In this document: in pieces, positions 1,140-5,364 of the stretch | How positions within the stretch are numbered: position 1 is the first letter of the stretch | Layout: every line of letters begins with the position of its first letter | Source: Thermoanaerobaculales bacterium | GTDB lineage: Bacteria; Acidobacteriota; Thermoanaerobaculia; Thermoanaerobaculales; Sulfomarinibacteraceae | NCBI GenBank assembly: GCA_029287235.1 | Contig: JARFRM010000284.1 | Location: 1-64,000 of the forward strand | Length of the DNA stretch: 64,000 bases | Direction of reading: 5' to 3' | The notes under the pieces: generated by a model | Told to the model about the DNA's origin: nothing | Seen by the model: the letters and a program-made list of their open reading frames with translations, nothing else | Databases searched by the model: none | Program-made: the position numbers and the translations under genes

Positions 1140-1186
1140 CTTTTTTTCTGGCCCTGGCTTTCAGAAAGCCAGGGCCAGAAAAAAAG
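1140..1186. repeat. Perfect 23-bp inverted repeat (1-nt centre), T7-stem...stem-A7
   Basis: CTTTTTTTCTGGCCCTGGCTTTC A GAAAGCCAGGGCCAGAAAAAAAG read directly. Confidence 0.9.
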
Positions 1187-1203
1187 GTCGAGCACCAATC
1201 TGC

Positions 1204-1232
1204 TTGACACCACACCGCCCCTGAAGTACAAC
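1204..1232 (+). promoter_or_regulatory. Candidate sigma70-type promoter: TTGACA (1204-1209), 17-nt spacer, TACAAC (1227-1232)
   Basis: Consensus -35, 4/6 -10, ideal spacing; predicted start lies next to the ATG at 1241. Confidence 0.55.
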
Positions 1233-1240
1233 TGATTTCG

Positions 1241-1333
1241 ATGAAGAACGCGACGCTTCCCACCATGGCAATGATGATGCGCATGTCGATGCGCAAGCTG
1301 TGGGTGAGGAGCCTCGCGGTCAGCTCGATCTAG
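1241..1333 (+). CDS. Met-rich leader peptide MKNATLPTMAMMMRMSMRKLWVRSLAVSSI (30 aa)
   Basis: Short ORF with 7 Met codons, six of them within 9 codons (1265-1291), directly upstream of a terminator and metY. Confidence 0.7.
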   Translation: MKNATLPTMAMMMRMSMRKLWVRSLAVSSI

Positions 1334-1353
1334 TAACACCGCCACAAAGCTCC

Positions 1354-1383
1354 AAACCCGCAGCCCGGTGCTGCGGGTTTTTT
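1354..1383 (+). terminator. Rho-independent terminator / attenuator (AAACCCGCAGC-CCGGT-GCTGCGGGTTT-TTT)
   Basis: 11-bp stem followed by U-run between the leader ORF and metY. Confidence 0.85.
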
Positions 1384-1412
1384 CGTGGCAGAAAAATAGG
1401 AGCCGGACATGA

Positions 1413-3892
<2,480 letters not shown>

Positions 3893-3894
3893 TC

Positions 3895-5364
3895 ATGCGG
3901 GTTCTCAAGTTCGGAGGAAGCTCCGTCGCCGATGCCGATCGAATCCGACGGGTGGTTTCCATCGTCGCCGCCGAGCGTGCTCACGGGCCCATCGTGGTCG
4001 TGGTCTCAGCCCTCGGCGGGGTCACCGATGAACTGGTGGCCCTGGCCGATGGGGCGCCCGAAGAACGCGAACCGTTGAAGACGGCCATCGACCGGATCCT
4101 CAACCGCCACCTCTCGGTCATCGCCGAGCTTTCCCCGACAGACGACGACACCCGATCCGAGATCGCCGCCACCATCGACGAGCTCAGACGGCTCATCATC
4201 GGTGTCGGCTATATCGGCGAGAACCCGCCCGCCGTTCGCGATCGGATCACCGCCATCGGCGAGCGGCTGTCGGCGCCCATCGTTGCCTCAGCACTCAGGG
4301 CGTCGGGCCAACCGTCGGTCCCGGTGAGCGGGACCGAGGTCATCCGCACTGACTCTCGTCACGGTGCGGCCGAGGTGGCTTCGGCGGCCACCTCCGATCT
4401 CGCCAGGAAGCGCCTGCTCGGCATCTGCGACGCGGTCATCCCGGTGGTCACCGGCTTCATCGGCGCCGATGAGCGGGGTACCGCAACCACCCTGGGGCGC
4501 GGAGGCTCCGATCTCACGGCCACGGTTCTCGGCGCCGCACTCGAAGCCGATCGGGTGGAGATCTGGACCGATGTCAACGGTATTTTCACCGCCCCTCCGC
4601 GGGTCGTGGCGGGAGCCCGGCCTCAACCCTACGTGAGCTACGACGAGGCGGCCGAGATGGCACGATTCGGCGCGACGGTGCTCTTCACCAAGACCATCGC
4701 CCCGGTGCGCGAACTCGACATCCCGGTGGTCGTTTGCAACACATTTGACCCCGAAGGCCCGGAGACCTGGGTCGGTCGCGAACCCGAGTTGCCGTCAGGG
4801 GCACGCGCACTGGCGTCGGTCGAACACGCTGCTGTTCTCAAGATCCGATCAGCCGGCGATGCGACCTCCGCCGCCGGCGCGGTGGCCGAGGTTTCGCATC
4901 GCTGTCTCATGGCGACCATGGCCGCCGGCAGCGACGAGTGGACCATCGTCGCCGCGGAGACCGACGCCGATGAACTCCACCGTGATCTCGAAAGGTGCGG
5001 CCTCCAAGTGGAGTTCATCACCGAGACCAGCGTGGTCTCGGTGATCGGGTCCCGCCTGCTGCAGCAGCCGTGGGTGGCCGGGCGGGCGCTCGAGGCTCTG
5101 GGGCGCCGAGACATCGCCCTCAGGGGGGTCATCTGCCCCTCCGAACAGGTCTTCTGCATGGTGGTGGACCACACGGACCACCACCGTTGCCTGACAATCC
5201 TGCACGATGCCCTGATGCTCCCGCACCTGGCCGGCCGAGCCTCGGACGCGGCACGGCGCGAAGCCCTCAAGAAGGGCGACCGGGACGGGTCGACCCCGCT
5301 TCACCGCGGCAGTGCTCGGCACGACAGGGACCGTCGGTCAACGGCTCGTCCACCGGCCGCATAG
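3895..5364 (+). CDS. lysC: Aspartate kinase (C-terminal ~25 aa read through an asd remnant in another frame)
   Basis: KFGGSSVADADRIRRV, GFIGADERGTATTLGRGGSDLTAT, ACT-domain-like C-terminal part. Confidence 0.9.
   Translation: MRVLKFGGSSVADADRIRRVVSIVAAERAHGPIVVVVSALGGVTDELVALADGAPEEREPLKTAIDRILNRHLSVIAELSPTDDDTRSEIAATIDELRRLIIGVGYIGENPPAVRDRITAIGERLSAPIVASALRASGQPSVPVSGTEVIRTDSRHGAAEVASAATSDLARKRLLGICDAVIPVVTGFIGADERGTATTLGRGGSDLTATVLGAALEADRVEIWTDVNGIFTAPPRVVAGARPQPYVSYDEAAEMARFGATVLFTKTIAPVRELDIPVVVCNTFDPEGPETWVGREPELPSGARALASVEHAAVLKIRSAGDATSAAGAVAEVSHRCLMATMAAGSDEWTIVAAETDADELHRDLERCGLQVEFITETSVVSVIGSRLLQQPWVAGRALEALGRRDIALRGVICPSEQVFCMVVDHTDHHRCLTILHDALMLPHLAGRASDAARREALKKGDRDGSTPLHRGSARHDRDRRSTARPPAA
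5285..5350 (+). pseudogene. asd: Remnant of the aspartate-semialdehyde dehydrogenase N-terminus (GRPRFTAAVLGTTGTVGQRLV)
   Basis: Alternative-frame translation matches the Rossmann start of Asd (AVLGATGTVGQRFV) but degenerates after ~20 codons and stops at 5440. Confidence 0.55.

What the first reader, a model, noticed from the sequence alone, without database searches (positions are those of the whole stretch)
1204..1383. Candidate methionine leader-peptide transcription attenuator upstream of metY-metX-lysC
Seen: a 30-codon ORF (1241-1333, MKNATLPTMAMMMRMSMRKLWVRSLAVSSI) with six Met codons in nine codons (1265-1291), then a strong intrinsic terminator (1354-1383) before metY. The terminator 5' arm can instead pair with sequence just after the Met run: 1297-1305 GCUGUGGGU with 1356-1364 ACCCGCAGC (one GU), 1308-1312 GGAGC with 1349-1353 GCUCC, and 1316-1320 GCGGU with 1338-1342 ACCGC. 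That gives about 19 bp, mutually exclusive with the terminator. A ribosome stalled on the Met codons would leave this arm free (readthrough); one reaching the stop at 1331 would disrupt it (termination). This is the classical trp/his attenuation logic applied to Met. I do not know of a described example in this lineage; methionine genes are more often controlled by SAM riboswitches, T-boxes or MetJ.
Basis: partly seen in the sequence, partly recalled or inferred. Interest (0 to 1): 0.88.

Follow-up and report, generated by a model that had tools for sequence, protein, structure and literature searches.

The report
Methionine/cysteine leader-peptide attenuator before metY
A tiny reading frame packed with methionine codons sits at the very start of the methionine-synthesis mRNA, followed by a switchable stop signal, so the cell very probably lets the operon be read only when its ribosomes run short of methionine (and, in relatives, cysteine); sequence comparison shows the same device in Acidobacteriota and several other bacterial phyla, but nobody has tested it at the bench.

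Summary
A TTGACA promoter puts the transcript start at about 1239-1241, so the uORF (1241-1333, six Met in nine codons) is essentially leaderless. Arm 2 (1297-1320) can pair with arm 3 (1349-1364; antiterminator), arm 3 with arm 4 (terminator), and arm 1 (1245-1264) with arm 2. The same anatomy precedes metY in 36 of 125 metY loci scanned (Acidobacteriota, Acidimicrobiia, Eisenbacteria, Gemmatimonadetes, Ignavibacteria/Bacteroidota). ORFs chosen only by promoter-to-ATG spacing had 152 Met in 1281 codons, against 7 and 0 ATG in the other frames. Arms covary: partner-swap permutations gave 0/5000. One family of the class is only weakly supported.

New here: Cys is also strongly enriched inside the Met run, so the device probably reads sulfur amino acids. 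Similar leaders precede sulfate-uptake, sulfone-monooxygenase and cystathionine-synthase-like genes. In four Ignavibacteria/Bacteroidota loci the leader precedes a SAM-I riboswitch. A second Met-bearing uORF (1409-1534) overlaps the metY start.

The closest precedent found is a predicted Streptomyces metL leader before metNIQ. I call it a new variant of ribosome-mediated attenuation, untested experimentally.

The parts
1204..1209 (+). -35 hexamer TTGACA
   Evidence: sequence; TTGAC lies 36-42 nt 5' of the uORF ATG in 36 of 125 metY loci
1227..1232 (+). -10 hexamer TACAAC, 17 nt spacer; predicted transcript start about 1239-1241
   Evidence: sequence; TACAAC, TAGAAC, TATAAA and the like at the same spacing in relatives
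1241..1333 (+). uORF1, leader peptide MKNATLPTMAMMMRMSMRKLWVRSLAVSSI, essentially leaderless
1265..1291 (+). regulatory Met codons (6 in 9 codons)
   Evidence: sequence; in-frame Met enrichment over the family
1245..1264 (+). arm 1 (protector), pairs with about 1302-1322
   Evidence: partner-swap test 2 of 5000 in 16 Acidobacteriota leaders
1297..1320 (+). arm 2 (antiterminator 5' arm)
1349..1364 (+). arm 3 (shared: antiterminator 3' arm and terminator 5' arm)
1354..1383 (+). intrinsic terminator hairpin (arms 3 and 4) with T run
1409..1534 (+). uORF2 [17 protein letters not shown]..., has a Shine-Dalgarno-like sequence, overlaps the metY start in another frame
1503..2825 (+). metY, O-acetylhomoserine aminocarboxypropyltransferase (TIGR01326)
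2822..3892 (+). metX, homoserine O-acetyltransferase
3895..5364 (+). lysC, aspartate kinase; a second copy lies elsewhere in the assembly

Best explanation
It is a ribosome-mediated (trp/his-type) transcription attenuator of the metY-metX-lysC operon that reads charged Met-tRNA, and in the wider family Met- and Cys-tRNA. RNA polymerase starts at about 1239-1241 and a ribosome starts directly on the 5'-terminal AUG (1241). If charged Met-tRNA is plentiful, the ribosome crosses the Met run and reaches the stop codon (1331). It covers or disrupts arm 2, arm 3 pairs with arm 4, and transcription ends at about 1383. If charged Met-tRNA is scarce, the ribosome stalls at 1265-1280. Arm 1 is masked, arm 2 is free and pairs with arm 3 before arm 4 is made, and the polymerase reads into metY-metX-lysC. 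With no ribosome, arm 1 pairs with arm 2 and the terminator forms. Shown by sequence: promoter spacing, codon run, mutually exclusive arms, their covariation and spread across phyla. Inferred: leaderless initiation, stalling, termination and readthrough efficiencies, and the sensing of Cys. A second, unexplained layer is uORF2, which probably adds a Met-dependent translational gate on metY.
For: (1) Codon run: ORFs upstream of 125 metY loci chosen only by geometry (TTGAC + 36-42 nt + ATG, 15-60 codons) gave 38 hits in 36 loci. 37 had at least 2 Met beyond the start; 152 of 1281 codons were Met, with 7 and 0 ATG in the other frames. The rest of the same loci gave 20 hits with 10 Met in 664 codons. 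(2) Antiterminator: arm 2:arm 3 pairing beats dinucleotide shuffles; Fisher P 4e-11 in 16 Acidobacteriota leaders, 6e-6 in 5 leaders of other phyla, 6e-5 in 3 Ignavibacteria/Bacteroidota leaders. (3) Covariation: swapping partners between species weakens pairing (own -24.4 against -21.4 +/- 0.7 kcal/mol, 0 of 5000). In the core helix, U-A changes to C-G at one pair (10 against 6 sequences), and G-C changes to A-U at two pairs in L056 and/or L067. (4) Protector 1:2: own -30.2 against -26.6 +/- 1.1, 2 of 5000. (5) State folds: with a ribosome at the first Met codons the antiterminator is the predicted fold even when arm 4 exists (-48.5); with a ribosome at the stop codon the terminator forms. 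(6) The window and its nearest relative (L009) are 95% identical over the uORF run and arm 2, against 42-46% in flanking spacers and 69% at metY third codon positions. (7) The same motif was found genome-wide before other sulfur genes. (8) No riboswitch or T-box in the window.
Against: No expression, transcript-start or termination data. The relatives are mostly metagenome-assembled. In one family (f5, 11 leaders with CCGGCCCTCYC terminators) pairing is only weakly above shuffles (Fisher 0.004, 1 of 11 individually) and the swap test is not significant (557 of 5000). Arm 1:arm 2 pairing exceeds shuffles individually in only 7 of 36. Related leaders are not independent samples. The window's own leader has no Cys codon. 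The initiator codon is also Met, so severe starvation might lower initiation and blunt the response.
Confidence: 0.9

Rival explanations
1. The leader RNA binds a ligand or tRNA directly (a SAM/SAH or unknown riboswitch, or a Met T-box), and the Met-rich ORF is incidental.
For: metY in other bacteria often has SAM-I riboswitches, including many loci fetched here.
Against: No Rfam family matches anywhere in the 64 kb window. Conservation lies in codons and frame (152 in-frame against 7 and 0 out-of-frame ATG) and in arm complementarity rather than a fixed aptamer; peptide length and sequence vary freely outside M/C residues.
Confidence: 0.04
2. The uORF encodes a functional small protein or a nascent-chain arrest peptide that senses Met or SAM by its sequence, not by tRNA charging.
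For: Conserved, translated-looking ORF; arrest peptides controlling downstream genes are known in general.
Against: Residues around the Met run differ between leaders (MAMMMRMSM, MVMCMC, MSMSMPMC, MMCMA); only Met and Cys recur. Arms covary, as expected of RNA switching.
Confidence: 0.03
3. A plain 5'-UTR terminator with a chance or repeat-derived ATG run; no amino-acid response.
For: One-off hairpins are common; the consensus scanner expects about 0.9 terminators per kb by chance in this region.
Against: Recurrence with fixed promoter spacing, frame bias, Cys co-enrichment and covarying arms in several phyla.
Confidence: 0.02
4. The element acts mainly at translation, with uORF2 as the Met-dependent gate on metY and terminator read-through constitutive.
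For: uORF2 with Met codons overlaps the metY start in the same frame in 9 of 9 genomes that have it; 20 of 162 in-frame Met codons against 0 and 0.
Against: uORF2 is confined to a subset of the window's class; the leader and terminator exist without it in most loci. No consistent sequestering of the metY ribosome-binding site was found. It would explain a second layer, not the covarying antiterminator.
Confidence: 0.06

Closest known systems
Predicted metL leader before metNIQ in Streptomyces lividans TK24 (PMC8079986)
   Same: Leaderless leader peptide with Met and Cys codons (...RCMCRRMCAF) before a methionine gene cluster; proposed attenuation.
   Different: Transporter operon, one organism, no clear terminator and untested there. 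Here: biosynthetic metY, clear terminator and antiterminator, covariation, several phyla.
Classical ribosome-mediated attenuators (trp, his, leu, thr, ilv, phe leaders)
   Same: Cognate-codon run, mutually exclusive 1:2, 2:3 and 3:4 arms, intrinsic terminator before the biosynthetic genes.
   Different: Amino acid is Met (with Cys), which is also the initiator; no Shine-Dalgarno (leaderless start); outside the usual lineages. Rfam's leader families in the 2013 survey cover only His, Trp, Thr, Leu (PMC3766115).
Polycysteine leaderless short-ORF attenuators of mycobacteria (Canestrari 2020; title seen in the reference list of PMC13236596; paper not readable here)
   Same: Leaderless ORF with a run of sulfur-amino-acid codons before an operon.
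   Different: There Cys runs; here Met runs with interspersed Cys. The mechanism in that paper could not be compared in detail.
SAM-I riboswitch (RF00162) control of metY
   Same: Same target gene; terminator-based feedback on Met supply.
   Different: Senses SAM by an aptamer; the window has none. In four Ignavibacteria/Bacteroidota loci it follows the Met leader in tandem.
Met-specific T-box
   Same: Reads Met-tRNA charging to control terminator choice.
   Different: Direct tRNA binding, no translated ORF; no RF00230 match in the window.

Membership tests
Ribosome-mediated (trp/his-type) transcription attenuator | Short leader ORF with a run of codons for the amino acid made by the operon | tested here: met
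   6 Met in 9 codons before metY-metX-lysC; enrichment over 36 loci with frame control
Ribosome-mediated (trp/his-type) transcription attenuator | Intrinsic terminator between leader ORF and first gene | tested here: met
   1354-1383; present in all but possibly one of 36 leaders (L012 has only a distant one)
Ribosome-mediated (trp/his-type) transcription attenuator | Antiterminator exclusive with the terminator, its 5' arm just after the codon run | tested here: met
   shuffles and partner swaps; covariation. Weak in family f5
Ribosome-mediated (trp/his-type) transcription attenuator | Protector arm that frees the terminator when no ribosome is present | tested here: met
   1245-1264 with 1302-1322 in the window; supported as a group in 16 Acidobacteriota leaders, not individually in most other loci
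Ribosome-mediated (trp/his-type) transcription attenuator | Leader ORF translated | tested here: inconclusive
   Promoter-to-ATG spacing and frame conservation imply leaderless translation; no ribosome profiling
Ribosome-mediated (trp/his-type) transcription attenuator | Termination falls when the cognate tRNA is uncharged | not testable with these tools
   needs in vitro transcription-translation or reporter assays
SAM riboswitches | SAM aptamer fold | tested here: not met
   No Rfam match at gathering threshold in the window
T-box | RF00230 match with specifier loop and antiterminator bulge | tested here: not met
   No Rfam match in the window
Leaderless Cys-codon attenuators (mycobacterial type) | Run of Cys codons | tested here: not met
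   Window leader has no Cys; relatives have Cys mixed with Met
Leaderless Cys-codon attenuators (mycobacterial type) | Leaderless start of the short ORF | tested here: met
   TTGACA 37 nt before ATG; inferred from sequence, not mapped

The most novel reading that the evidence does not exclude
The metY mRNA carries two Met-coded uORFs in series: a leaderless Met/Cys transcription attenuator and then a second Met-bearing uORF overlapping the metY start as a translational gate. The first belongs to a previously unnamed, multi-phylum family of sulfur-amino-acid attenuators, which in Ignavibacteria/Bacteroidota works in series with a SAM-I riboswitch and so computes on both Met-tRNA and SAM.
Probability: 0.4. 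Interest if true: 0.82.

Novelty: new variant of a known kind. Interest (0 to 1): 0.68.

Why it matters
Met is missing from the classical list of amino acids read by leader-peptide attenuators, perhaps because it is also the initiator. Here is a widespread candidate family with a testable prediction about that paradox: a graded response at moderate Met shortage, and lost readthrough at extreme shortage when initiation fails. It assigns a function to attenuators in Acidobacteriota, a phylum where almost none had one (PMC2965389). It shows sensor exchange at one gene (Met leader or SAM riboswitch before metY within Acidimicrobiia) and stacking of both sensors in Ignavibacteria/Bacteroidota. The geometry (TTGACA, 36-42 nt, ATG, M/C run, terminator) is a simple search rule for sulfur regulons in uncultured bacteria.

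Tried and rejected
First genome pattern with too short a gap found only chance hits and not even the known leaders. Arm tests that left out the terminator loop made family f5 look unsupported; redone with the loop included it is weakly positive. Sequestering of the metY ribosome-binding site by uORF2: no consistent structure. Riboswitch or T-box in the window: none. An initial scan misread loci on the minus strand; corrected. The mycobacterial polycysteine paper was not held. The L066 (Thermonema) Met/Cys ORF lies after a SAM riboswitch without a clear terminator and was left out of the counts. Genome hits in long coding sequences (several with one shared, recurring sequence) were taken as chance matches.

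Full report
WHAT IS THERE. The window is G000:C201:1-64000 of a 5.07 Mb metagenome-type assembly. Same-order and same-class relatives match public records titled 'Acidobacteria bacterium': G036:C36 has the length of JACQZW010000059.1, and G093:C10 that of JACTMI010000036.1. Downstream of the leader are metY (TIGR01326), metX and lysC. The assembly holds a second aspartate kinase, so this lysC is plausibly dedicated to the Met branch.

PROMOTER AND START. TTGACA at 1204-1209, a 17-base spacer and TACAAC at 1227-1232 put the transcript start at about 1239-1241, and the uORF ATG is at 1241. In relatives TTGAC lies 36-42 bases before the uORF ATG almost without exception. The leader ORF is therefore leaderless or has a 5'-UTR of a few bases. 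This is inferred from sequence; no 5' ends are mapped.

MORE THAN CHANCE. ORFs were picked purely by geometry (TTGAC, 36-42 bases, ATG, 15-60 codons) upstream of 125 metY loci, with no use of Met content. This gave 38 ORFs in 36 loci; 37 have at least two Met beyond the start. Met is 152 of 1281 codons; ATG in the other two frames occurs 7 and 0 times. The rest of the same loci gave 20 such ORFs with 10 Met in 664 codons. In the window's own genome, the pattern of leaderless ATG plus Met-x-Met-x-Met occurs once, at this locus.

TAXONOMIC SPREAD. Leaders with a terminator precede metY in Acidobacteriota (28 loci). They also occur in Acidimicrobiia (L050, L063) and an 'Actinomycetes bacterium' record (L056), Eisenbacteria (L067), a Gemmatimonadetes bin (L068), and Ignavibacteria/Bacteroidota bins (L073, L079, L087, L089, L100). 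In Acidimicrobiia, other metY genes have a SAM-I riboswitch instead (L062, L064).

RNA SWITCH. With the Met run covered, 1293-1366 folds as the antiterminator (-33.9 kcal/mol, z -4.8), and the terminator forms when a ribosome sits on the stop codon. Without a ribosome, arm 1 (1245-1264) pairs with arm 2 and the terminator forms. Over the family, arm 2:arm 3 pairing beats dinucleotide shuffles: Fisher P 4e-11 for 16 Acidobacteriota, 6e-6 for five leaders from other phyla, 6e-5 for three Ignavibacteria/Bacteroidota, 0.004 for family f5. Swapping arms between species weakens pairing (0 of 5000 permutations for the 16, 38 of 5000 for the five, 557 of 5000 for f5). Arm 1:arm 2 gives 2 of 5000 for the 16. 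In 20 core-aligned leaders one pair changes U-A to C-G (10 against 6 sequences) and two change G-C to A-U in L056 and/or L067; permuted partners never reach the observed pairing (0 of 2000). L089 has two leaders in tandem whose arms differ in step (GAAGGG with CCCTTC, GTGAAGGG with CCCTTCAC; read from the sequence). Related sequences are not independent, so these figures measure consistency rather than exact significance.

CYSTEINE. Among non-Met residues within or next to the Met cluster, 61 of 181 are Cys; elsewhere in the uORFs 26 of 927 are. The window and L009 have none. The wider family therefore probably reads Cys as well as Met supply. Consistent with this, genome-wide searches for the geometry in the class also hit Met/Cys leaders before a sulfate-binding protein (L199, MKIPAEQMHMCC..., with a hairpin but no clear T run), an operon with a protein related to dimethylsulfone/alkanesulfonate monooxygenases (L185, MTHQSLAMSMCCC...), and a cystathionine gamma-synthase-like gene (L162). 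The many other hits of these loose patterns lie in coding sequence and look like chance.

SECOND LAYER. After the terminator, the window and eight relatives carry uORF2, with a Shine-Dalgarno-like sequence (window 1409-1534). It overlaps the metY start, always in the same frame, and has 20 in-frame Met in 162 codons (codons 2-19), with 0 and 0 in the other frames. No conserved structure hides the metY ribosome-binding site. A plausible but unproven mechanism is that ribosomes translating uORF2 run over the metY start and interfere, while stalling at its early Met codons leaves the start free. In one relative (G018, L203) metY is reduced to a 39-codon remnant and metX is gone, yet leader, terminator and uORF2 persist before lysC.

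TANDEM WITH A RIBOSWITCH. In L073, L079, L087 and L100 the Met leader and its terminator are followed by a SAM-I riboswitch with its own terminator and then metY, two gates in series reading Met-tRNA and SAM.

COMPARISON WITH THE LITERATURE. The library searched is open-access PMC only. The one clear precedent is the predicted metL leader before metNIQ in Streptomyces lividans, leaderless, with Met and Cys codons and no clear terminator (PMC8079986). A 2013 survey listed His, Trp, Thr and Leu leaders (PMC3766115). A 2010 survey noted that almost no predicted attenuators in Acidobacteria had a function (PMC2965389). Searches for Met leader terms found nothing else relevant. Absence from this library is not proof of novelty.

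VERDICT. The finding is real and its interpretation is well supported by anatomy and comparison. It works like a trp/his attenuator and meets the sequence-testable defining features; translation of the leader and the response to tRNA charging are untested. It is a new variant of a known kind, unusual in its amino acid, leaderless start, breadth and stacking with other sensors.

Noticed in passing
window 1409-1534; L009, L010, L011, L013, L020, L021, L022, L203: Second Met-bearing uORF after the terminator, overlapping the metY start, same frame in 9 of 9; motif (ATG)CGAATGCGAATG; mechanism unknown.
   Followed up: partly
L073, L079, L087, L100 (about 500 bases before metY): Met leader plus terminator in tandem with a SAM-I riboswitch plus terminator.
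   Followed up: partly
L089, about 460 bases before metY: Two complete Met leaders with terminators in tandem, arms differing in step.
   Followed up: partly
L203 (G018:C169): metY reduced to a 39-codon remnant and metX missing, but leader, terminator and uORF2 kept directly before lysC.
   Followed up: partly
L199, L185, L162: Met/Cys leaders before a sulfate-binding protein, a sulfone/alkanesulfonate-monooxygenase-like operon and a cystathionine gamma-synthase-like gene (frame broken in the assembly): a possible sulfur regulon.
   Followed up: partly
L062, L064 against L050, L063: Within Acidimicrobiia, metY has either a SAM-I riboswitch or a Met leader: sensor exchange at one gene.
   Followed up: partly
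window 1141-1188: Near-perfect inverted repeat with T and A runs (bidirectional-terminator-like) between a Sir2-family gene (282-1124) and the leader.
   Followed up: no
G000:C336:32735-34105: A second aspartate kinase in the same genome, 40% identical to the lysC of this operon.
   Followed up: no
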